This document shows positions 19,178 to 40,299 of a DNA stretch of 41,228 bases, in pieces. The stretch spans positions 1 to 41,228 of IMG/VR virus record IMGVR_UViG_3300025156_000011; one strand, given 5' to 3'. Below the pieces are notes generated by a model. The model worked only from the letters and a program-made list of their open reading frames with translations. It did not search any database and was not told where the DNA came from. The translations under genes were made by a program, and so were the position numbers. Numbering within the stretch: the first letter of the stretch is position 1; each line of letters opens with the position of its first letter. The stretch comes from a virus.

Positions 19178-20288
19178 GGGCATCCCCCAGGTCTGAGAGC
19201 AGCTCAAGGAGTTCTTTGAACTGGTCTCTTGTTATTTCTGTGTGAAAAGTGCGGATGAGGTCTGCAAGAGGGAGGCGCCCTCCCCTTGCGCTCAACAACT
19301 GCACTGTCTTGTATGCGTAATGTGCTAGCTTGTTTGGAGACGAAAGGATAAAGGCGATGCGCATCTTCTTCTCGATTCCATCAAACATCTCCACAGAGGT
19401 CTCAATGTCGCTGACATCCACAACCAACCTCTTGTCTGCGAGAGCTAGCAGAGCTGCGATCTTGAGAACATGGGTCTTGACTTTGCGCTCCTGATAGGCA
19501 ACGAGGCGGTGGTCCTGGGAGGCGTCGATCTCCTGTGAGATATACCAGTCTCTATAGAAGTCCTCTGCTGCCCTGCTTATCTCGATTTCACTGTAAAGGT
19601 CTCCCATCCACAACAGATGCTCGATGAGCCTTTCCCTTGCTTTGCGCTGTGCGTCTGTAAGGGAAGGCGAGGGCTCCTTTCCTCGTTTCTTGTCCTCGTA
19701 GATAATGATCGTGCGGGCAAGGAAGCCGGTGGAGTTCATGTCAGAGACCACGTTTTCCCCGAACCACTCAGGCACGGCTGCTCCGATCAAGTTGAAATAG
19801 GGGTTTGTGACCTCGAAGACTCCAGCGTTCTTTGTCTTGTAAATGAGGACGTCGTCCTTGTCCCAAATGTTCACAAGGAACTTCACCATGTCCACACCGG
19901 AGGCGAGGAGCACGTTTAGCTCAGAGGCGACGTATGTAATGGAGGAGTGCCTAAACATCTTCCCCTTGACCTCGATCTGTTTTTCAAGCTCACACATCTC
20001 CATTATTATTTTTTCCTTGAGGACTGAGTCCTCGAAGACATTGTATCCAGCTTCCTTGAGGAGCCTCATCCCGATGGAGAGGGATGTGGACTTCGCACAG
20101 ACACCTGGAGGTGCCACGAGGACAACGTACAAGTTGAGGAAGAGCTTGAAGAACCCTCGGTCGATCCACAACCGCTTCTCCGCTGCGCCCGCAAGGGTGG
20201 ACATTGCCACCCAGAGGTGCATGACCTCCGGCGTCTCGTTTCCTTCCGTGTAAAAAAGGTAGTCTTCTACAAACTTCGGGTATTTCAT
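19134..20288 (-). CDS. DUF3987-like ATPase, replication associated
   Basis: 384 residues. The start (YPKFVEDYLFYTEGNETPEVMHLWVAMSTLAGA) and LNLYVVLVAPPGVCAKST match the DUF3987 group of phage and plasmid primase/helicase-associated ATPases. The P-loop reads APPGVCAKST (59-68): the usual Gly before Lys-Ser is Ala here, so ATP binding may be altered. The C-terminal end resembles a small winged helix. It is coupled to the polymerase gene by ATGA and probably acts in replication initiation or fork progression. Confidence 0.65.
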   Translation of the reverse strand: MKYPKFVEDYLFYTEGNETPEVMHLWVAMSTLAGAAEKRLWIDRGFFKLFLNLYVVLVAPPGVCAKSTSLSIGMRLLKEAGYNVFEDSVLKEKIIMEMCELEKQIEVKGKMFRHSSITYVASELNVLLASGVDMVKFLVNIWDKDDVLIYKTKNAGVFEVTNPYFNLIGAAVPEWFGENVVSDMNSTGFLARTIIIYEDKKRGKEPSPSLTDAQRKARERLIEHLLWMGDLYSEIEISRAAEDFYRDWYISQEIDASQDHRLVAYQERKVKTHVLKIAALLALADKRLVVDVSDIETSVEMFDGIEKKMRIAFILSSPNKLAHYAYKTVQLLSARGGRLPLADLIRTFHTEITRDQFKELLELLSDLGDAHVEVKEGKKYLVAE

Positions 20289-22603
20289 ACCTTGAGCTCA
20301 TTGTAGACTTTTTCTATATTGTTCAAGTCTTTGACCTCTTTGAGCGTGCCCCAGGAGTAGCCGAGCTCGAAATCGAGGGGCACGACGAATGTGAGGCCGT
20401 TGACCGTGATCGGGACTTCAACCAGCTTCTTCATTGCATACATGCACCTTATGATGGTTTCAAGGTCATCGTCTACTTGACAGAGGATAGAGTCGTAGAC
20501 TGAGAGGCGAAACTCCCAGGAAGGGAGGTCCTCTTCGTAAATGCGTATCAACCCCTCGTTGAGGTAGTCTGCAGCAGTGGACTGGGGTTCTGCAGCGATG
20601 GCCTCTCTGTACGTCTTGTCGTTGAGGGGCCCAAAGAACTGGATTACTCGCCCGAAGACTGTGCGGATCACCCTTTCCCTCTTGACTTGCCTCTCTACCC
20701 GCTGTTGCCACTCCCTCAAACCAGGACGAATCTCGTAGTACCTTGCTTGGAGCTCCGCAGCCTCTCTTTCGGAGCAACCGAGGATAGCAGCCATTAGGCG
20801 CTTCCCTAGGCGGTAATGGCTTCCGTGCGCTATGCGTTTTGCTGTGTAGCGGTGAGTAGCTTTGTCAACTTTGTCGTAGGGGATGTGGAAGAGCATAGCT
20901 GCTGTCTCTGTGTGAAGGTCTGTCTCATCGAACTTTCGCAACCACTCCTCGTTTCCGCTAAGCGCAGCGACGATGCGGGCCTCCACTTGGGAGAGGTCAG
21001 CCTGAATGAAGATTTTGTCCCCATCAGCCTTGTAAAAGGTGCGGGTTTCTTTAGGGATGTTTAGCAAGTTTTTCCCTGAGCCCGTGATGCTTTCTGAAGA
21101 CGCAAACCTGCCGGTGTAAGTGCCATGGATCTTCAGCGCCGTCCGTATCCTTATGTCAGGGTCGTACTTGAGGTTGTAGAAGTCTCGCTTCTTCTTTGTT
21201 TCCCTGAGCTTTCTTATGAGACCAATGTGCAGCTTGAAGGGTGTCGGCATCCTCTCCAACTTCTGCAACTTCTCATCATTTGTCGTGACCTTCCCATGTT
21301 TCTTTTGCACGGGGAGCTGCCAGTCCTTGTAGATGAGTTTCTTAAGCTGAACGTGGGAGTTCGTGTTGACATCGCCTATCGTTTGCTCTTTGATTGTTTC
21401 AAGGACTTCGATTGCCCGCTCATTTTTCTTGCGGAACTCTTCAATGGCGTACAAGTCGAGCTTTGTGCCCCGAACCATAGCGAAGAGGCAGGGGCGGATG
21501 AGAGACATCATGCGGTTGTAAGCCTTGCGGGTGCCCCACTCATCTATCTCTCGTTGTTGAACCTCCATTATCTCATAGGTAAGGCAGCAGTCCTTCCCAC
21601 AGTAGATGTAGAGGGAGTCCCAGTCAACAGCGCCCCTCTTCACATCCTTCAGATAGTCCTTGACGTCTTCGCCTTCCTTCAAGTCCTTCCAGTAGGGCTC
21701 GTTCGTGTAGATGGAGGCACAGAAAGCTAGGGACTTGAGGAGCGTAGGGTAGATTGCGTGCTGGGCCAGCATGGTATCGCAGTAGATGTTATTGTTGAGG
21801 ATTTTGTAGTAGTAAGCGTTGTGCATACAGTCAAAGAGGGCGTTGTGGAAGACCTTGGGTGTAGAGGAGGCGCAGAAGCGGGAGAGCTGGCGGAGGACAA
21901 TTGGCTGGCGGAGGAGCTCCTTGGAAAGGACAAAGGCTTCTTTCTTGGAGGTTGCCATGCCATAGGCAACCATTACTGGCCCAGTTGTCTCGATGTCGCA
22001 CACCACAGGAGAGGGGTAGTCTATGAGGTCGTGGAGGAGCTTCAAAGCCTCAGTTTCGTTCGTGACGGTGCAGATGTTGCGCTCAGGATAAAGAATCTCA
22101 GGGAATTTGGACTCACGAGCAGCCTTCTTCAAATCAAGGATGCAGATAGGCTCGAAGCGCCCGTTTCCCCTTATGATGTTCCCTGGATGGATGATGGGGA
22201 GGACTTTGAGACCTGGGACAAGGGTGCAAGGGAGAATGGCACCACGGTACTTTGTAATTTGAGGGCGGTTCGTGAGGACGTTCAGCGCCTTTGCACCTAC
22301 AGCGATGATGAGGTTGAGACCTTCGGCCTTCAGTCGCTCCAGGTCCTCGGCCAACTGCCTTCGGCCCTCAGCGATCACCTCCTGGGGCAGGGTGTCGTAT
22401 CTGTTCTTGAACGGACGCTTGTGGACGGTGTTCGTCACGAAGCACTCGTGCCACTTGAGTCCAGCGAAACGGAACCACTTCCGAAGGATTTGCCCCTCGT
22501 ATCCGATGAAGGGCTTGCCCCTACGGTCTTCCTCTTCTCCAGGCGCCTCGCCGACGACGCAAATCTTAGCTGGGTTTTGTGGGACCTGTTGGATTAGGCG
22601 CAT
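20285..22603 (-). CDS. Fusion of uracil-DNA glycosylase-like domain and family A DNA polymerase
   Basis: 772 residues. Residues 14-145 match the UDG superfamily: VVGEAPGEEEDRRGKPFIG, VTNTVHKRP and IIHPGNIIR; the four-Cys cluster of family 4 enzymes is not evident. From about 200 follows a 3'-5' exonuclease (DIETTG 203-208, FHNALFD, YCGKDCC) and a polymerase. Motif A is ADLSQVEAR (D536), motif B runs from R585 through K589 to Y597, and motif C is VYDS (D704). The position equal to E. coli Pol I F762 is His (H593), and the motif C Glu is Ser. It is the main replicase candidate. ATG at 22603 with GAGGAG upstream. Confidence 0.9.
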   Translation of the reverse strand: MRLIQQVPQNPAKICVVGEAPGEEEDRRGKPFIGYEGQILRKWFRFAGLKWHECFVTNTVHKRPFKNRYDTLPQEVIAEGRRQLAEDLERLKAEGLNLIIAVGAKALNVLTNRPQITKYRGAILPCTLVPGLKVLPIIHPGNIIRGNGRFEPICILDLKKAARESKFPEILYPERNICTVTNETEALKLLHDLIDYPSPVVCDIETTGPVMVAYGMATSKKEAFVLSKELLRQPIVLRQLSRFCASSTPKVFHNALFDCMHNAYYYKILNNNIYCDTMLAQHAIYPTLLKSLAFCASIYTNEPYWKDLKEGEDVKDYLKDVKRGAVDWDSLYIYCGKDCCLTYEIMEVQQREIDEWGTRKAYNRMMSLIRPCLFAMVRGTKLDLYAIEEFRKKNERAIEVLETIKEQTIGDVNTNSHVQLKKLIYKDWQLPVQKKHGKVTTNDEKLQKLERMPTPFKLHIGLIRKLRETKKKRDFYNLKYDPDIRIRTALKIHGTYTGRFASSESITGSGKNLLNIPKETRTFYKADGDKIFIQADLSQVEARIVAALSGNEEWLRKFDETDLHTETAAMLFHIPYDKVDKATHRYTAKRIAHGSHYRLGKRLMAAILGCSEREAAELQARYYEIRPGLREWQQRVERQVKRERVIRTVFGRVIQFFGPLNDKTYREAIAAEPQSTAADYLNEGLIRIYEEDLPSWEFRLSVYDSILCQVDDDLETIIRCMYAMKKLVEVPITVNGLTFVVPLDFELGYSWGTLKEVKDLNNIEKVYNELKV

Positions 22604-23868
22604 TTTTTCTCCTCGATGTAAGCAATTGTTGCTGAGATGCTTTTGTTGTAATGACGTTCGAGCTTCTCACAACCGATGAACTGCCTGTTGGTGTCGTAAC
22701 ACGCTCGGATAGTGGAGCCACTCCCGCAAAAGACGTCGAGGACGGTGTCGCCTGGGGAGGAGAATGTCTGAATGATGTCGATGATGAGGGCCTCCGGCTT
22801 TTGAGCAGCGTGAAAGCGCTTGCCTGCTGGAGGAGGTGGGTAGGTGAAGATGTTTGAGCGTCCTTGTTTGGTGAGGCGAGCGTCAGGGGTAGTGTATGCG
22901 TACAGGGCGATTTCGGCGGCGCACCCAACACGGAGGGTTGATTGAATTGATCGCCCCGTTGCCCCCGATTTTACCCATATCAACGGCACCCTTGGAACGT
23001 AGAACCCTGCACGTTCAGCCATGACACATACGGCCTCATACAATTGATATGACGTCCATAAAACCATGTACCGCCCGTCACGGAGGACACGGCGAAAATG
23101 GGGCATACATGCCTTCAGCAGGGCGACGATGTCAGCCTGCTCGTCTTCGTATGCTTCCTCCGGAGAGGCAACAACATCATCCAAGTTGATGCCATACGGT
23201 GGATCAGTGAGTACTAGATCCACCGAGGCATCGTCGAGGGTGGAGAGGAAGGAGACGGCATCCCCTAAGCGGTAGTTCGCCAGAAGGCCCTCGAAGTCAA
23301 CTTTAGCTTTCGCAGCCTTCGCTTTCTCAACTGCACCGAGTATCTTCTTTTTCTCCTCAGCATCCATCTTGCGGACAGCCTCGCTCACAGAGGTTGCGTC
23401 CTTGACAAGCTCCTCGTTGTCAGCGATCTTCAGGAGCCGGCTCACCATAGCGGGATCTTTGCCCAGGAGCTTTGCTGTGTCCTTCACAGTCCAACCGCCA
23501 GTGTGTCCTGGGACGGGGCGTCCCTTCTCTTCGACGCCCCTCTCATGGATGGCTTTGACCAGCCGAGCGATTTCGACGGGCTTCAGGTCTGAGCGTCGGA
23601 TGTTCTCTTCGAGCTGGGCCACGAGGTCGTCGATACCCTCCCTCAAGATGAAGTGCTTTCCCTCCTCCAGGTGGGTTAATCCAAGGTACTCGGTGAGGGC
23701 AATGAAGCGACTGCGGCCTGCCCTTACGATGTAGGAGTCCCCGACCTTCTCCACGAGGATCGGCTGTAAGAGCCCGACGTTCTTGATGGAGAGAGCCAGG
23801 TCTCCAATTCCTTCACGCTCTTCTCTGAAGTCGCTTTCGAAGATAAATTGCTCAGCTGGTACACGCAT
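22594..23868 (-). CDS. ParB-like domain fused to N6/N4 DNA methyltransferase
   Basis: 424 residues. Residues 1-75 form a ParB-type nuclease-like domain (ILVEKVGDSYIVRAGRSRFIAL). Residues 95-150 contain a KorB/ParB-like helix-turn-helix (WTVKDTAKLLGKDPAMVSRLLKIA). From about 195 follows a methyltransferase with TDPPYG (221-226) before FCGSGST near the C-terminus, the beta-class order. The domains suggest a DNA-binding front end that directs adenine N6 or cytosine N4 methylation. A likely use is protection of phage DNA from host restriction. It overlaps the polymerase gene by 10 bp. No cognate restriction gene is visible. Confidence 0.85.
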   Translation of the reverse strand: MRVPAEQFIFESDFREEREGIGDLALSIKNVGLLQPILVEKVGDSYIVRAGRSRFIALTEYLGLTHLEEGKHFILREGIDDLVAQLEENIRRSDLKPVEIARLVKAIHERGVEEKGRPVPGHTGGWTVKDTAKLLGKDPAMVSRLLKIADNEELVKDATSVSEAVRKMDAEEKKKILGAVEKAKAAKAKVDFEGLLANYRLGDAVSFLSTLDDASVDLVLTDPPYGINLDDVVASPEEAYEDEQADIVALLKACMPHFRRVLRDGRYMVLWTSYQLYEAVCVMAERAGFYVPRVPLIWVKSGATGRSIQSTLRVGCAAEIALYAYTTPDARLTKQGRSNIFTYPPPPAGKRFHAAQKPEALIIDIIQTFSSPGDTVLDVFCGSGSTIRACYDTNRQFIGCEKLERHYNKSISATIAYIEEKKCA

Positions 23869-26854: not shown

Positions 26855-26891
26855 GAGAGGGTGGGCGTTCGCACCCTCTCAGGAGCGCTCC
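26855..26891. other. Hairpin and palindrome at the distal end of the TIGR array
   Basis: A perfect 9-bp inverted repeat, GAGAGGGTG-N8-CACCCTCTC (26855-26880), is followed one base later by the 10-bp palindrome GGAGCGCTCC (26882-26891). On the array transcript these lie about 30-65 bases beyond the last unit. There is no U-tract, so a simple intrinsic terminator is unlikely; RNA processing, 3' protection or protein binding are possible. The rest of 26796-26918 holds a small GGGG/CCCC hairpin and the next gene's leader. Confidence 0.5.
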
Positions 26892-26918
26892 AACACAATG
26901 GGAGTTCTTTGTTTTTAA

Positions 26919-27459
26919 TGACTCACTTGCCTAGACTGGTTTCCTTAGCGCTCGTGGTTCACTTGGAACCTTTGGTTTTCTTGAATGGTTTGGTTCACTC
27001 CATTTCCCTGGTCTCCTTGTTGACAATGATTCACTCAGCGGCCTTGGTTTCCTTCATGAGCGTGGTTCGCTTCTGATAGGTAGTTTTCTTTTCCTCAATG
27101 ACTCACTCTCAGCCCAAGGGTTTCTGTCCTGACATAGTTCGCTTTTTGCTCGTGGGTTTCTTTTGTTTGTTGATTCACTTTTCAAAAATGGTTTCCTTGT
27201 TGACCCTGATTCACTTGCAAATTATGGTTTCTTTGGTGGCAATGGTTCACTTTTCGTCCGTGGGTTTCCTCTTCGTTTTTGATTCACTCTTATAAGATGA
27301 GCTCCTTACTATGTCTGATTCACTCTTACAGAATGGATTTCTTAGATTGTGTGATTCACTTATGCGGAGTGGTTTCCTTGTTTGCGATGATTCACTTCGT
27401 AATTTTGGTTTCCTCCTGGACATTGATTCACTCCTAATCCTTAGCTTCCTCGATTTTCT
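26919..27459 (-). repeat. TIGR array: 15 tandem 36-bp units with paired 9-nt spacers
   Basis: Fifteen units abut each other, all 36 bp except one of 37 (27243-27279). On the plus strand each reads TGATTCACT-N9-TGGTTTCCT-N9; in the transcript sense AGTGAATCA and AGGAAACCA alternate with variable 9-mers. This matches the TIGR design: dual-guide 36-nt tigRNAs. Plus-strand spacer pairs from 26919 on: TGCCTAGAC/TAGCGCTCG, TGGAACCTT/TGAATGGTT, CCATTTCCC/TGTTGACAA, CAGCGGCCT/TCATGAGCG, TCTGATAGG/TTTCCTCAA, CTCAGCCCA/GTCCTGACA, TTTTGCTCG/TTTGTTTGT, TTTCAAAAA/TGTTGACCC, TGCAAATTA/TGGTGGCAA, TTTCGTCCG/TCTTCGTTTT, CTTATAAGA/TACTATGTC, CTTACAGAA/TAGATTGTG, TATGCGGAG/TGTTTGCGA, TCGTAATTT/CCTGGACAT, CCTAATCCT/CGATTTTCT. 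Units near the nuclease gene are best conserved. Frames on either strand are broken by stops or the 37-bp unit, so it is not a repeat protein gene. Confidence 0.9.
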
Positions 27460-27462
27460 TGG

Positions 27463-28404
27463 TTAGTAAACCCACCCCCTTTCTTCAGGCATAATCATCC
27501 TCTCGTGGCCTAGATGCGCTACGGGATAAACTGGGTCTGTTGGCAATCCAGCGATCGTCCGCCCTACATACCACCAGTCAGCGAGAAAGTGCTTCATTAT
27601 CGCTCGCATGGCTGTGCCGTGACGGTGCGAAGGCTTCGTCTCACACCAAGGCTTCTCAACGAGCTTCCCTTGAGTGTTCCTTGTCTTGACAATGCGACAA
27701 CTGTTCTCAAGCCGCTTTTTCACTCTGTCGTAGACCTTGCGATAGGGCCCTCGGCTCTTGACTTGGGAGTCTGCAAGGGTGTAGAGGGCCGTTCGAAGGG
27801 TCTTGTTTCCGCCGGAGGCTTCGCCCTTCGTGTACCTCTCATGAGAGGCGCAGTGGAGTCCAGCGTACTTCCACAAGGAAGACGCATGTTTTGCTTTTTC
27901 AAGCCGGATGTACACCAAGCAGAAGGCAACCGTCATAGGCCCCACGCCTCGCACTCCAAGAGCAGCCTTTGCCAAAGGGGAGTCAATGGACTTCACGAAC
28001 TTCTTCACAGCCCTGCTCCTCTCCCTCAACTTCAACTCAACCCCTCGGAGCTGGGCCTCGAGCCAGGCGACGGTGTCGGGGTTGAGGGAGTCAGTTTGGC
28101 GCTTGTAAGCGAGTAGCTGGTTTGCGAACTTGTTGCGCAACTTCAGGATCTGCTGGCGGTCGTCAACTAGGCACTTTAGCTCATCGAGGTCGGCAGGGCG
28201 GATGACAAGGTTGCCGTGACGCTGCATGTGGGCGACGGGGTGGACGACTCTGGTGTTCTCGTTCGTGTAGATTCCGCCTTGCGCCTTTGGAGTGATACGG
28301 TCGGTGTCAAAGAGGGCCGTCCACTCCTCTAGCAAGACGTTTGAGAGAGCGCATTCGCCGTTCTGCCTTTCTCTGACCTTCTTTTTGAGAGCCTCTTTTG
28401 CCAT
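27463..28404 (-). CDS. tasH: TasH-like RNA-guided nuclease: HNH domain plus Nop/IS110-like domain
   Basis: 313 residues; ATG at 28404 with AAAGGAGAAGTC before it. Residues 15-65 are HNH-like: C18, D35-R36 (in place of the usual D-H), GG at 43-44, N50, H59 and H63. Residues 66-145 are helical. From 150 follows an IS116/IS110 C-terminal (Transposase_20-like) domain: VRGVGPMTVAFCLVYI, SSLWKYAGLHC, GGNKTLRTALYTLADS and YRKVYDRVKKRLE. This domain is related to the Nop domain of box C/D snoRNPs. There is no DEDD/RuvC N-terminal domain as in true IS110 transposases. Together with the adjoining array this is the TIGR-TasH arrangement: RNA-guided DNA binding and probably cleavage. The replaced first His leaves cleavage unproven. 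Confidence 0.87.
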   Translation of the reverse strand: MAKEALKKKVRERQNGECALSNVLLEEWTALFDTDRITPKAQGGIYTNENTRVVHPVAHMQRHGNLVIRPADLDELKCLVDDRQQILKLRNKFANQLLAYKRQTDSLNPDTVAWLEAQLRGVELKLRERSRAVKKFVKSIDSPLAKAALGVRGVGPMTVAFCLVYIRLEKAKHASSLWKYAGLHCASHERYTKGEASGGNKTLRTALYTLADSQVKSRGPYRKVYDRVKKRLENSCRIVKTRNTQGKLVEKPWCETKPSHRHGTAMRAIMKHFLADWWYVGRTIAGLPTDPVYPVAHLGHERMIMPEERGWVY

Positions 28405-28416
28405 GACTTCTCCTTT

Positions 28417-30237
28417 CTAGTACCTGATGATAAGGTTGCCTGAGCGCTCCGCCTCGATGGCGTCCATCACTTTAAGGAAGGTTGCCTTCCCGAGGACGTT
28501 CTGGGCCACCTTTTGCTTTGCGAGGATGTCCTCCCTCGTGCAGATGCCCATTTTCCAGAGGGACTCCGCCCTCTTTCTCCCGATTCCTGGTAACCTAACG
28601 AGGTCAATGAGCTTCGCAGGAACGCCAGACTTAAGCATCATCTCTAGCACCTCCGTGTACTCTTTGTTGAGGCCCGCAATCCTCAGAGCGGCGCAAATCC
28701 GCTCTACATCGGCGAGGAACCCGAAGACCACGGTGGAGACGAAGTCCGTGACGGGCTTCCCTGAGAGCCAGTGGTAGATTGCGGTTGCGAGGATTGTCTG
28801 CGCTCCATAAGGGAGTTTGATGACGTCTTTGAGGGTGTCAGGGATGAAGGTGTCGTACGCTAGCGAAGGGATGTTGGCGAACGCTTTTGCGATGGGGGTC
28901 GGGGCAGTTGGCTTCGAGCTCAAGTTTGCCTTTAGGTGGTACAAGTCTATGGGGTCCACGTACATGAGGGCAGCGGCTCGGCCGACGGGGGAGACGGTGG
29001 GGAGGTCCTTAGACCCACGCACGATGCTGTACTTGCGCAGGAGTTCCATCGCCTCAGCGGGGGCGTCCCCAAGCAGGCCCTGGTGGGCCGCAAGGGTGGA
29101 GTCGAGGAACTTGGAGATGTCGTGCGCATCCATCCCCTCACGGGCGATAAACGACACAAGATGGAAGTAGATCCTCCTCGGGAGGACGCTCTTCACCTCT
29201 GGCACGTCCATCACCTCCCTTCGCATCTTCTCAAAGTACCAGTCCATGAAGATGTAGTAGACTACGCCTTTCTCTGAGAGGCCGTATCTGCCGATTCTCC
29301 CTGCCTCCTGCTTGATGTCAGCAGGGTCAACGAGGGTGGGGCCTCGATGACCGCCCACAATGACGCCCACGTCTGCCGGCAAGTTGACACCGTACGCTAG
29401 GGTGGAGGTTGAGACCATCACCCGCAAGCGGCGCTCCCTGAAGGCTTCCTCGTAGGATGCTCGCTTCTCCTTTGGTACTTTGCTGTAGTGAAAGGGACAG
29501 TCCAGCACCTCTGCGAGCCTCCGCCCCGTTCCTGTGGAGTGGACGAAGATGAGGAACTGAGAGCCTGGATGGCGGTTGAGGATGCGGGCTATCTCCTCAG
29601 TTGCCTTTGCCAAGAAGCCCCAGTTCGTATCCGGCGCTCGGATGAAGTGGTGCTCTTGGATGACGGGGCGCCAGTCTGTTTTGACGACCCTCGTAGGCTT
29701 GGAGTTGAGGCGTGTGAGCCAGGAGCCGAGCTCGTCTGCGTTTGGGATTGTTGCGGAAAGGAAGATGATGCGGGCCTCAGGGTTGATTTGGGCGAATCTT
29801 GTCAGGCCAATTTCAAAGGCATCCCCTCGTCCATACATGGAGAGCATGTGCGATTCGTCGCTGACGAGGGTGCCGATGGAGCGGAGCCAGCGCCTCGCCC
29901 CTCTCGTCTTCGAGTCCAAGCACTCCGTGGTCATGAGAATGAGCTGCTCGTTGACGGTGACGCCTGGGCGGGAGTGGTCACTTGTGAAGGCGACCCGCTT
30001 GTAAGGGACGTCCGCCCAAGCGTGGAGTTTTTCGTTTGTGAGGGCCTTCAAGGGACTCAGATAAAGCGCCTTGCGCCCGCTCTCGAGAGTGGGGAGCATG
30101 AACTGCTCAGCGACGATCGTCTTCCCGCTTGAGGTGGGAGCGAGGACTACGAGGTTGCAGTCCTCCTCCACGAAGGGCCACGTTAGGCGCTGCAATGGGT
30201 TGTAGGTCAGGCCTTTTGCTTTATGGTAAGCAAGCAT
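28417..30237 (-). CDS. Ski2/Hel308-like SF2 DNA helicase
   Basis: 606 residues. Seen: Q-motif-like YNPLQR (12-17), Walker A APTSSGKT (33-40), DESH box (127-130), SAT (161-163), TSTLAYGVNLPA and motif VI QEAGRIGR (310-317). Near the C-terminus a helix-hairpin-helix, LVRLPGIGRKRAESLWKMG, follows a winged-helix-like part, the layout of Hel308 and other Ski2-like enzymes. It uses ATP to unwind or remodel forks, R-loops or recombination intermediates. Only 12 bp separate it from the tasH-like gene, so they are co-transcribed; a role for the helicase in R-loop handling is speculation. AGGAGGAATAA precedes ATG. Confidence 0.88.
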   Translation of the reverse strand: MLAYHKAKGLTYNPLQRLTWPFVEEDCNLVVLAPTSSGKTIVAEQFMLPTLESGRKALYLSPLKALTNEKLHAWADVPYKRVAFTSDHSRPGVTVNEQLILMTTECLDSKTRGARRWLRSIGTLVSDESHMLSMYGRGDAFEIGLTRFAQINPEARIIFLSATIPNADELGSWLTRLNSKPTRVVKTDWRPVIQEHHFIRAPDTNWGFLAKATEEIARILNRHPGSQFLIFVHSTGTGRRLAEVLDCPFHYSKVPKEKRASYEEAFRERRLRVMVSTSTLAYGVNLPADVGVIVGGHRGPTLVDPADIKQEAGRIGRYGLSEKGVVYYIFMDWYFEKMRREVMDVPEVKSVLPRRIYFHLVSFIAREGMDAHDISKFLDSTLAAHQGLLGDAPAEAMELLRKYSIVRGSKDLPTVSPVGRAAALMYVDPIDLYHLKANLSSKPTAPTPIAKAFANIPSLAYDTFIPDTLKDVIKLPYGAQTILATAIYHWLSGKPVTDFVSTVVFGFLADVERICAALRIAGLNKEYTEVLEMMLKSGVPAKLIDLVRLPGIGRKRAESLWKMGICTREDILAKQKVAQNVLGKATFLKVMDAIEAERSGNLIIRY

Positions 30238-34035: not shown

Positions 34036-34368
34036 TCACAAAGCATATCCACTCACTCTAAATTTCTCTATCCCCCAAATCGCATTGAAGAATATTGTTT
34101 CACCCCAAAAGTGGCGTTCACTCTCCACCAGGATCTTTGCTCTTCGGCTGGGCCAACCAGTCCACTGCTCACCTAGAACACTGGCATACACCCTAAACCT
34201 TTCCGTCTCAGGGACTACTGCATCAAACAGAAACTGCTCTTCGCTGCCAACATCAACAGCCCACTTCACTTTAAGGTAGGATTTGCCTGACCATGAGACT
34301 TTGGGCTCCACGTCTACCACCTTTGCACTAAACCAGACCGGTTTCTTCACGACTTCTAATGGTTCCAT
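34036..34368 (-). CDS. Small beta-rich early protein, unknown function
   Basis: 110 residues from the ATG at 34368 (GAGGAGGTAAAA before it). Alternating hydrophobic pattern (VWFSAKVVDVEPKVSWSGKSYLKVKWAVDVGSEEQFLFDAVV) suggests a beta-barrel, possibly an OB-like fold. No binding motif is seen. The leader is nearly identical to that of the neighbour at 33525-34025. Confidence 0.56.
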   Translation of the reverse strand: MEPLEVVKKPVWFSAKVVDVEPKVSWSGKSYLKVKWAVDVGSEEQFLFDAVVPETERFRVYASVLGEQWTGWPSRRAKILVESERHFWGETIFFNAIWGIEKFRVSGYAL

Positions 34369-34370
34369 TT

Positions 34371-34613
34371 TTACCTCCTCGTCCTCACCAACATTCCTCC
34401 TACACACTCCCTCTTCTCATTGAAGACATCCACGGAAAGAATGAGGTTCTCCCCGTCGGAGGAGCCCTCGATTCTGCAAGCGAGGAAGCTCTTCCCCTCG
34501 CTTCGCTGATAGATGTTCATAAGGAAACCTCCGTCCTTCCCCTTCGGGCCAAACGTCACCAGGGATTTGCGCCCGTCCACGTGGGCTTCTGCCCACCAGT
34601 TTCTCATCGCCAT
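34371..34613 (-). CDS. Small early protein, unknown function
   Basis: 80 residues; AAAGGAGGCATGT precedes the ATG at 34613. Beta-rich with RKSLVTFGPKGKDGGFLMNIYQRSEGKSFLACRIEG and a closing basic tail. The pattern (GKDGGF..NIYQR..G) recalls small single-domain beta proteins; no family can be named. Confidence 0.55.
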   Translation of the reverse strand: MAMRNWWAEAHVDGRKSLVTFGPKGKDGGFLMNIYQRSEGKSFLACRIEGSSDGENLILSVDVFNEKRECVGGMLVRTRR

Positions 34614-34625
34614 ACATGCCTCCTT

Positions 34626-34832
34626 TCACTCAATAACCCTCACCACGAGTCCACCCTTCACCTCCACCTTCGCATACCAGCGGTGGGGCTGTGGGTAGTG
34701 AGGGCCTTCGATAAATTCTATCCCATCTGTCGTAGAAGGAAACGGGCCAGGGCTCCAGACCTCCACTCGCTCCCCCTTCTTCACAGCTTGCCTTAACGCT
34801 TTCTTCGTTTTAAAGTTAGGCCTCACGTACAT
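34626..34832 (-). CDS. Small early protein, unknown function
   Basis: 68 residues; AGGAGGTAGAAA precedes the ATG at 34832. The basic start MYVRPNFKTKKALRQAVKKGERVEVW is followed by a Pro-rich loop and a short beta hairpin (WYAKVEVKGGLVVRVIE). The sequence KTKKALRQAVKKGERVEVWSPGPF is of a type often seen in small phage proteins with unknown roles. Confidence 0.56.
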   Translation of the reverse strand: MYVRPNFKTKKALRQAVKKGERVEVWSPGPFPSTTDGIEFIEGPHYPQPHRWYAKVEVKGGLVVRVIE

Positions 34833-35061
34833 TTTCTACCTCCTTTACCTCGACAAAGGCGCCTTCCTCGAAAAGCCTTATTTCGACCTCCCGAAGGAAC
34901 AGCGCCAGATAATAGCACCCTCCGAACACCGAGCCTATCCGTTGCCCGTGGTGCGAAAGGAAGAGTGCCTTTGGATGGGCGACTGTTGCGGACACTCCTC
35001 CGTAGTGGATGCTTAACTTCTCTCCGTCATACATAAGGATACCGTCTCTTTTAAACTTCAC
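34816..35061 (-). CDS. Small early protein, unknown function
   Basis: 81 residues from a GTG at 35061 that is 8 bases from GGAGG; another GTG at 35070 overlaps the ribosome site. The sequence VSATVAHPKALFLSHHGQRIGSVFGGCYYLALFLREVEIRLFEEG is hydrophobic in the middle and may fold as a small alpha/beta domain. It overlaps the neighbour on each side, supporting translation. Confidence 0.53.
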   Translation of the reverse strand: MKFKRDGILMYDGEKLSIHYGGVSATVAHPKALFLSHHGQRIGSVFGGCYYLALFLREVEIRLFEEGAFVEVKEVENVREA

Positions 35062-35578
35062 CTCGACCACCTCCTTCCTTTAGTATCTTGACAAGTCTTT
35101 CATACTTCTCTTCTTGCCGAGCAGTCCCTTCTGGCTCCAACCATTTCTCCACTAAGCTGGGATGAAGCACAGTCACTTTCCTGACAATCAAGCTGCTTCC
35201 GCCTAAAAGGATGTCCTCAGAGAAGACAGCTACAAGGACCTCGTCCGCTGACAAAGTCTTGACTACCCATTCCTTGTCACTGTCTACTCTGTATGGGGAG
35301 ACATGCATCCCGAGCTTAGGCAAGGATAAAAAGAAATACTTCTGGCTGCCTCTTACATGAAAAGGGTAGGACTCTGTTTTGACTACTGTCTCTATTCCCT
35401 GCTCGACTAAATCTGCTTCAACTTCAACTCCAAACGAGAGCTCTCGAAGCTTATATGGTCCCCTGGAAGATAGGTAGAACGGGAAGAGCATTCCTTTCCC
35501 CCACCAGAAGGACTTCCGTCCAATCAGATAGTTGTCCTGAAGTCCATAGATTCCGCCAACCTTGATTTTTAAACACAT
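35051..35578 (-). CDS. Unknown early protein, paralogue of the gene at 33525-34025
   Basis: 175 residues from the ATG at 35578 (GAGGAGGTAGAG before it). N-terminus MCLKIKVGGIYGLQDNYLIGRKSFWWGKGM and the central LGMHVSPYRVDSDKEWVVK match the gene about 1.5 kb downstream. Both have a long beta-rich middle and a helical end. The two copies are separated by three unrelated small genes, so the duplication was not a simple recent tandem one. Confidence 0.63.
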   Translation of the reverse strand: MCLKIKVGGIYGLQDNYLIGRKSFWWGKGMLFPFYLSSRGPYKLRELSFGVEVEADLVEQGIETVVKTESYPFHVRGSQKYFFLSLPKLGMHVSPYRVDSDKEWVVKTLSADEVLVAVFSEDILLGGSSLIVRKVTVLHPSLVEKWLEPEGTARQEEKYERLVKILKEGGGRGEV

Positions 35579-38931: not shown

Positions 38932-39114
38932 GTTATTAGGTTATTGCAATATGCTAATATTAGGTTATTGACGAATTGAGATAGTAGCATGTGGTGATAA
39001 GTCAATAGTCTAATATTATGATATTGTAAGATTGTAATATTAGAATATTGTAAAATCGGAATGTTGGAATATCGCCATGTTGCGACATTAGAGGATTGTA
39101 ATATTAGATTATTG
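38932..39114. repeat. AT-rich region with five 15-16 bp direct repeats
   Basis: Copies of consensus TAATATTAKRWTATTG at 38955-38970, 39011-39026, 39035-39050 and 39099-39114, plus GTTATTAGGTTATTG at 38932-38946. A minus-strand frame through it encodes only the low-complexity translation of the repeats and has no ribosome site. Such AT-rich iterated blocks often serve as unwinding regions at origins or as binding arrays. Confidence 0.6.
39000..39005 (-). promoter_or_regulatory. Candidate -35 box for the early operon (weak)
   Basis: TTGACT on the minus strand with TATCTC 16 bases downstream (38983-38978). The -10 box is poor, so this is only a suggestion; the leader from here to the first gene would be about 160 bases and include the hairpins. 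Confidence 0.25.
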
Positions 39115-39568: not shown

Positions 39569-39742
39569 ATGGAAAAAACATTTTATATTTATTGTCGATC
39601 AGCTCAGGTTTCTTATAGGTTTGAAAACGATCAAAGTTTTTGGTTTATAGAAATTGATGCAAACCATGAAATTAGTATTGATGCTAATATTTATGATTTA
39701 GTTATTTTAGACTATGGGATAAAAGTAATAGAAAGGGACTAA
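39569..39742 (+). CDS. Small plus-strand protein, unknown function
   Basis: 57 residues from the ATG at 39569; GGACGGGAG lies before it. The frame is open back to a TTG at 39524, but that part covers the inverted repeat. Beta-rich and acidic (FYIYCRSAQVSYRFENDQSFWFIEIDANHEISIDANIYDLVILDYGIKVIERD). Codon use is AT-rich, unlike the minus-strand genes, which suggests a different origin or constraint. No family recognised. Confidence 0.6.
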   Translation: MEKTFYIYCRSAQVSYRFENDQSFWFIEIDANHEISIDANIYDLVILDYGIKVIERD

Positions 39743-39757
39743 AAAACCTTAAAAATT

Positions 39758-39789
39758 GCCTGTGTCTGTTAGTAAGTGCTTGCACTCAC
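39758..39789. repeat. Inverted-repeat arms between the two plus-strand genes
   Basis: GCCTGTGTC (39758-39766) is the exact complement of GACACAGGC at 39543-39551 upstream of the first gene. GCTTGCACTCAC (39778-39789) is the exact complement of GTGAGTGCAAGC at 40253-40264 after the second gene. Each gene is thus enclosed by its own pair of complementary arms. Confidence 0.65.
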
Positions 39790-39804
39790 GGAAGGGGGAA
39801 AGCT

Positions 39805-40242
39805 ATGAGTGAGAAAAAAGAGGCTATTACGATGACCAAGGAACAAAAAGAGGCATGGGAAAGAGAAAAAGTCAAGGCTGTCAAAGTCTTAGTCAAAGAC
39901 TTCGTTGAAGTTACTGGAGCAAATATCCGGACTGATTACACGGATACAGAACTCAGGCAACCAAAAAATCTTGAATGGTATCAGCGGGTAGTGGTTCAAG
40001 GCATCAAAAGAGTAGTTGACTCGGATTTTAATGAAGCAAACAAAAAGATTGATGCTGATGCCAAAGAAATTGTCGAAGTAGTCAAACGTGGAAGTCAAAA
40101 GACTTCAAAGCAAGTGCTTAAGGAACGGGCACTTGCTCTTATGGTAGAAAAGCAGATTAGTAATCCGATTATTATCCAGTTAATTTTAAAGGATACAGTT
40201 GAAGCGTTGAATGAAGCAATCGAGTTAATGAACGACAAATAA
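39805..40242 (+). CDS. Plus-strand helical protein, unknown function
   Basis: 145 residues; GAAGGGGGAAAGCT precedes the ATG at 39805. Charged and helical throughout (MTKEQKEAWEREKVKAVKVLVKDFVEV, later FNEANKKIDADAKEIVEVVKRGSQKTSK and ISNPIIIQLILKDTVEALNEAIELM). No DNA-binding or catalytic motif is seen. It forms an operon with the 57-residue gene, ending at the terminator at 40268-40299. AT-rich codon use as in its partner. It could be a regulator or replication accessory, but this is not shown. Confidence 0.65.
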   Translation: MSEKKEAITMTKEQKEAWEREKVKAVKVLVKDFVEVTGANIRTDYTDTELRQPKNLEWYQRVVVQGIKRVVDSDFNEANKKIDADAKEIVEVVKRGSQKTSKQVLKERALALMVEKQISNPIIIQLILKDTVEALNEAIELMNDK

Positions 40243-40267
40243 AATTTTAGCGGTGAGTGCAAGCGCC

Positions 40268-40299
40268 AAGGCCAAGGTCGTATGATCTTGGCCTTTTTT
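40268..40299 (+). terminator. Intrinsic terminator of the plus-strand operon
   Basis: Stem AAGGCCAAG (40268-40276) with CTTGGCCTT (40287-40295), followed by a T-run TTTTTT. It lies 25 bp after the stop at 40242, just behind the inverted-repeat arm. Confidence 0.85.

What the first reader, a model, noticed from the sequence alone, without database searches (positions are those of the whole stretch)
26919..28404. A phage-borne TIGR-TasH RNA-guided system: HNH/Nop-type protein with an adjoining dual-spacer array
Seen: a gene for an HNH-like plus IS110-C-terminal/Nop-like protein, whose stop is directly followed by 15 units of 36 bp, each with two conserved 9-mers and two variable 9-mers. Known: TIGR-Tas systems of phages and parasitic bacteria consist of a Tas protein with a Nop domain, sometimes fused to HNH (TasH), and a tandem interspaced guide RNA array processed to 36-nt RNAs with two spacers. 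Inferred: this locus is a member and makes guides against other DNA.
Basis: partly seen in the sequence, partly recalled or inferred. Interest (0 to 1): 0.96.

Follow-up and report, generated by a model that had tools for sequence, protein, structure and literature searches.

The report
Phage-encoded TIGR-TasH RNA-guided nuclease locus
This phage carries a genuine member of the recently described TIGR-TasH family, a small RNA-guided DNA-cutting protein next to its own array of paired 9-letter guides; the type of system is known, but a close relative of the phage shows that half of the guides have been swapped while the neighbouring genes hardly changed.

Summary
The finding is real and correctly named. 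Window 27463-28404(-) encodes a 313-aa TasH. It is 51.5% identical over 98% to the type TasH of Salicola phage CGphi29, and its AlphaFold model superposes on the solved TasH-tigRNA-dsDNA complex (9w04, TM 0.87). Unit order is edge repeat, 9-nt spacer A, loop repeat, 9-nt spacer B.

All 23 TasH loci from IMG/VR have the same kind of array beside the gene. Position 6 of each edge covaries with position 3 of the NEXT edge (184/191 Watson-Crick, 0/5000 shuffles), as expected if the RNA is cut inside the edges.

No natural target emerged: none in this phage or other TasH phages above chance, and IMG/VR hits were at chance.

What is new: in a sister phage (flanks mostly 85-95% identical) only 8 of 16 guide units are shared, collinearly, with internal blocks replaced. 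TasH arrays also contain duplicated guide units far above chance. Both bear on the open question of how TIGR arrays grow.

Classification: new member of a known kind. RNA expression, cleavage and targets are untested here.

The parts
27463..28404 (-). tasH: 313-aa TIGR-associated protein, N-terminal HNH nuclease (D33, R36, N50, H59, H63) fused to coiled coil and Nop/IS110-type RNA-binding domain
26882..27468 (-). TIGR array: 16 units of 36-37 nt, each edge repeat (9) - spacer A (9) - loop repeat (9) - spacer B (9); read on the minus strand, downstream of tasH
27433..27468 (-). first unit with 5'-truncated edge (TACTAACCA), overlapping the tasH stop codon; spacers AGAAAATCG / AGGATTAGG
26882..26889 (-). 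3'-truncated terminal edge AGCGCTCC; its C3 pairs with G6 of the preceding edge
26855..26880 (-). 9-bp hairpin GAGAGGGTG...CACCCTCTC directly after the array, identical in the sister phage; no T-run, so not a standard intrinsic terminator
28417..30237 (-). DEAD/DEAH helicase with HHH motif, 12 bp upstream of tasH and co-directional (probable operon neighbour, same in sister phage); not shown to be part of the system

Best explanation
A TIGR-TasH system carried by a tailed phage. Inferred from the family: the minus strand of the array is transcribed, probably together with tasH, and cut inside each edge repeat into 36-nt tigRNAs. Each tigRNA holds two spacers between box C (YCA) and box D (AG) motifs. 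A TasH dimer binds one tigRNA. Spacer A pairs with one strand and spacer B with the other strand of an 18-bp target (spacer A followed by the reverse complement of spacer B). The two HNH domains then nick both strands. Shown here: the protein, its predicted fold, the array, and the edge-edge covariation expected of tigRNA ends. Inferred: expression, processing, cleavage, and a role against rival mobile elements in the same host.
For: Protein: 51.5% identity over 98% to SpTasH; PDB TasH E=1.8e-98 and TasR 9mty E=1.4e-11. AlphaFold pLDDT 91; Foldseek best hits TasH-tigRNA-dsDNA 9w04 TM 0.87, TasR 0.53, IS621/ISCro4 recombinases 0.43-0.46. HNH residues D33, R36 and N50 invariant and H59/H63 near-invariant in 22 sequences; [quoted passage not shown] Array with the published layout, beside tas in 23 of 23 TasH loci. 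Edge i position 6 with edge i+1 position 3: 184/191 Watson-Crick, 0/5000 within-locus shuffles; the reverse pairing is at chance. Phage context: capsid, portal, protease, terminase. Spacers vary between phages while repeats do not.
Against: No target was found: no match with 2 or fewer mismatches in the phage itself, no excess in 1.17 Mb of TasH-phage and related DNA, exact 18-mers in IMG/VR at about the chance rate. No T-tailed terminator after the array. No RNA or biochemical data for this locus.
Confidence: 0.95

Rival explanations
1. The protein still uses the array, but as a DNA-binding regulator or recombination/packaging aid acting on the phage's own genome rather than as a nuclease against rivals.
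For: Nuclease-free TasA relatives with the same arrays are common in phages (Microcystis phage Mvi-JY20 and L054 onward); one TasH-like relative (L044) has lost both HNH histidines.
Against: HNH residues are intact here; no spacer pair matches the own genome with 2 or fewer mismatches; spacers turn over quickly between sister phages, unlike guides for fixed own sites.
Confidence: 0.12
2. An IS110-type transposase gene (as automated annotation would call it) next to an unrelated minisatellite.
For: Pfam and PHROGs name only IS110-type transposase families.
Against: HNH instead of a DEDD domain, fold and sequence closest to TasH, arrays beside the gene in 23/23 relatives, covariation across neighbouring repeats.
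Confidence: 0.01
3. A degenerate, unexpressed TIGR locus: the array decays by mutation.
For: Loop repeats are blurred in some units, two units look shifted or have off-consensus loops (W5, W9), and the last loop is poor.
Against: ORF intact and 96% identical in the sister phage; edge-edge pairing kept by compensating changes; eight units conserved in order.
Confidence: 0.04

Closest known systems
TIGR-TasH of Salicola phage CGphi29 (SpTIGR; Faure et al. 2025, PMC12045711; PDB 9w04, 9vzx, 9w02, 9w03, 21kl)
   Same: HNH-Nop protein of about 310 aa (51.5% identity), downstream array of 36-nt units, edge AGYGARYCA and loop AGACAACCA/AGGAAACCA of the same design, spacers of 9 nt mostly ending in A, tailed phage.
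   Different: Repeat sequences differ in the middle; here the array starts inside the tas stop codon; SpTIGR ends in a T-tailed hairpin built on the last edge, this array in a hairpin without T-run; 16 units against 10-11.
TIGR-TasR (TaTasR, PDB 9mty)
   Same: Nop domain, tigRNA design, box C/D logic and extra edge pair.
   Different: RuvC instead of HNH; box D is UG there and AG here; 22% identity in the structural alignment.
IS110/IS1111 bridge-RNA recombinases (IS621, ISCro4)
   Same: Shared RNA-binding C-terminal domain (TM 0.43-0.46).
   Different: DEDD recombinase domain, a single bridge RNA rather than an array, mobile element ends; none of these seen here.

Membership tests
TIGR-TasH | Nop/IS110-type RNA-binding domain | tested here: met
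TIGR-TasH | N-terminal HNH nuclease with intact motif | tested here: met
   D33, R36, N50, H59, H63 shared with SpTasH; model aligns over its whole length with 9w04
TIGR-TasH | Adjacent array of two alternating 8-12-nt repeats separated by 9-nt spacers | tested here: met
TIGR-TasH | Array begins and ends with truncated edge repeats | tested here: met
   TACTAACCA start, AGCGCTCC end
TIGR-TasH | Rho-independent terminator after the array (typical, not universal) | tested here: not met
   hairpin present but no T-run; the paper calls the terminator typical only, so this does not exclude membership
TIGR-TasH | Box C/D motifs covarying between edge and loop, plus an extra edge pair supported by covariation | tested here: met
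   AG...YCA in both repeats; edge i:6 - edge i+1:3 covariation
TIGR-TasH | Processing to 36-nt tigRNAs | not testable with these tools
   needs small-RNA sequencing
TIGR-TasH | tigRNA-guided cleavage with the two spacers pairing to opposite DNA strands | not testable with these tools
   needs purified RNP; natural targets not found
IS110 transposase | N-terminal DEDD domain | tested here: not met
   only PF02371 found; N-terminus is HNH

The most novel reading that the evidence does not exclude
TIGR arrays of phages diversify quickly without any dedicated adaptation genes: whole two-spacer units are duplicated inside the array, then diverge or are replaced, and blocks are exchanged between related phages, while the tas gene and flanks stay nearly fixed. 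This would make the array a fast-evolving guide repertoire under selection from changing targets.
Probability: 0.5. Interest if true: 0.7.

Novelty: new member of a known kind. Interest (0 to 1): 0.45.

Why it matters
The system itself is a further TasH, useful as an orthologue about 50% diverged from the only TasH that has been studied experimentally in the sources I could search. The wider value is comparative. Faure et al. call the emergence and expansion of TIGR arrays an enigma and found no adaptation genes. The pair formed by this phage and its sister record, plus duplicates inside other TasH arrays, gives direct sequence evidence of unit-wise turnover, so the question becomes testable with more relatives or with passaged phages.

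Tried and rejected
Self-targeting: spacer A + rc(B) and rc(B) + A, gaps 0-2, gave no own-genome match with 2 or fewer mismatches. Targets among TasH phages: 253 tigRNAs against 1.17 Mb gave 3 sites with 1 mismatch, against 3-10 with re-paired spacers, so no signal. IMG/VR: two exact 18-mers found nothing. Two 16-base versions gave 26 and 11 scattered hits, i.e. about 1.1 expected per 18-mer and 0-1 seen; a few groups of hits are only near-identical contigs. Genome collection: no TasH relative found with the patterns used. Rfam: no family. IS110 transposase label: rejected.

Full report
OBSERVATION. The gene at 27463-28404(-) is an intact 313-aa ORF. Its TAA stop is immediately followed by CCA and then by a strictly periodic array on the minus strand. 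I count 16 units, from about 27468 to 26882. The first has a truncated edge that overlaps the stop codon. Then come 15 edges, 36 nt apart with one spacing of 37, and finally a truncated terminal edge AGCGCTCC. Each unit reads edge (AGYGARYCA) - 9 nt - loop (AGRAAACCA) - 9 nt. Tandem Repeats Finder saw only a part of it, because half of each unit is variable. In first-order Markov shuffles the longest chain of such units was one.

PROTEIN. Pfam and PHROGs find only the IS110-type C-terminal domain. Direct comparison is decisive: 51.5% identity over 98% to a Salicola phage CGphi29 protein. CGphi29 is the phage whose TasH the discovery paper uses (PMC12045711). The PDB sequence search gives TasH at E=1.8e-98 and TasR (9mty) at 1.4e-11. 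An AlphaFold model from 20 sequences (pLDDT 91) matches TasH-tigRNA-dsDNA 9w04 at TM 0.87, TasR at 0.53 and IS110-family recombinases at 0.43-0.46. The HNH residues D33, R36 and N50 are invariant; H59 and H63 are near-invariant and both lost in relative L044.

CONTEXT. Major head protein, maturation protease, portal and terminase genes make the record a tailed phage. It is an IMG/VR virus record, possibly a fragment. A DEAD/DEAH helicase ends 12 bp upstream of tasH, as in the sister phage.

RELATIVES. One profile scan of IMG/VR gave 23 TasH loci (L031-L053) and many shorter Nop-only relatives. All 23 TasH loci carry a 36-nt periodic array beside the gene. The Microcystis phage homologue lacks HNH but has the same kind of array.

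RNA LOGIC. Over 237 units from 22 TasH arrays, both repeats share AG at the start and YCA at the end. These correspond to box D and box C (UG and CCA in TasR). The ninth spacer base is A in 86%, so the effective variable part may be 8 nt per spacer. Position 6 of edge i is Watson-Crick complementary to position 3 of edge i+1 in 184 of 191 neighbouring pairs (97 G-C, 87 A-T). Six more are G-T and one is a mismatch. Within-locus shuffles give 175.7 on average and never reach 184 in 5000. The same-edge pairing is weaker and the reverse pairing is at chance. This is the extra edge pair that the TasR structure places between the two half-edges of one processed tigRNA. It supports, from sequence alone, the strand, the unit boundaries and cutting inside the edges.

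MECHANISM. By homology, TasH dimers use each tigRNA to read an 18-bp site, one spacer per strand, and nick both strands; SpTasH does this in vitro without a target motif. I derived the site as spacer A followed by the reverse complement of spacer B from the published cut rule and 8-nt 3' overhangs. In the paper TasR did not block conjugation or phage plating but caused plasmid loss. A role in competition with other mobile elements is therefore plausible and unproven.

TARGETS. None was identified. The phage has no own-genome match with 2 or fewer mismatches. TasH phages are not targets of each other above the re-paired control. In IMG/VR the exact 18-mers of four conserved units gave 0, 0, 1 and 1 hits, where the 16-base counts predict about 1 each.

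ARRAY TURNOVER. The sister record G001 (IMGVR 3300021468_000003) has TasH 96% identical. Flanking DNA is about 85-95% identical over most of the record. Its array has 15 units. Eight units are shared and collinear (window units 3, 4, 8, 9, 11, 12, 14, 15, counting the truncated first unit as 0). Eight window units and seven sister units have no counterpart: 8-11 mismatches of 18 at best, which is the random level. The unmatched blocks lie at the tas-proximal end and inside the array, while the last two units are kept. In the other groups of close relatives I looked at: the Nop-only phages L084/L085/L088 (89-99% identical over the tas region) have different arrays, with the last unit kept. There two units share spacer B but not spacer A. 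L058/L080 (91-94%) differ by replacement of an internal block. Within arrays, near-identical units (3 or fewer mismatches of 18) occur in 4 of 1,453 intra-array pairs and 0 of 26,042 pairs between loci. Single-spacer matches number 16 against 1.7 expected with locus composition kept, 0 of 400 shuffles. The simplest reading is growth by unit duplication followed by divergence or exchange. The held text of the discovery paper does not discuss this and calls array expansion an enigma; its supplements were not available to me.

VERDICT. The count and ends of the array needed correction, and the claim about targets remains open. The kind of system is known; this is a new member, with a useful sister phage for studying array evolution.

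Noticed in passing
window 26882-27468 versus L001 5942-6520: Half of the guide units are replaced between two phages that are about 85-95% identical elsewhere; spacers A and B of shared units stay together.
   Followed up: yes
L050, L043, L041, L040: Duplicated tigRNA units or single spacers inside TasH arrays, far above the shuffled expectation, suggesting growth by duplication.
   Followed up: partly
L044 2980-3930: TasH-like protein whose HNH histidines are lost (PRPRMKKQG in place of PVAHMQRHG), probably a nuclease-dead form that keeps its array.
   Followed up: no
L084, L085, L088 after the tas gene (from about 3600): Three Nop-only phages with nearly identical tas regions but different arrays; one unit pair shares spacer B and not spacer A.
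   Followed up: partly
L033 4080-4120, L005 15740-15780, L006 5000-5040: In several loci the last edge repeat forms the 5' arm of a T-tailed terminator-like hairpin.
   Followed up: no
window 20285-22603: Single ORF joining a uracil-DNA glycosylase domain, a 3'-5' exonuclease and a family A DNA polymerase.
   Followed up: no
window 22594-23868: DNA methylase with an N-terminal ParB/KorB-like domain.
   Followed up: no
window 39011-39114: AT-rich tandem repeats (AATATTGTAATATTAG), possibly an origin or regulatory region.
   Followed up: no
G018 (L048): 34304-35251 and 39722-40291: A phage record with two Nop-type proteins, one TasH and one shorter match about 4.5 kb away.
   Followed up: no
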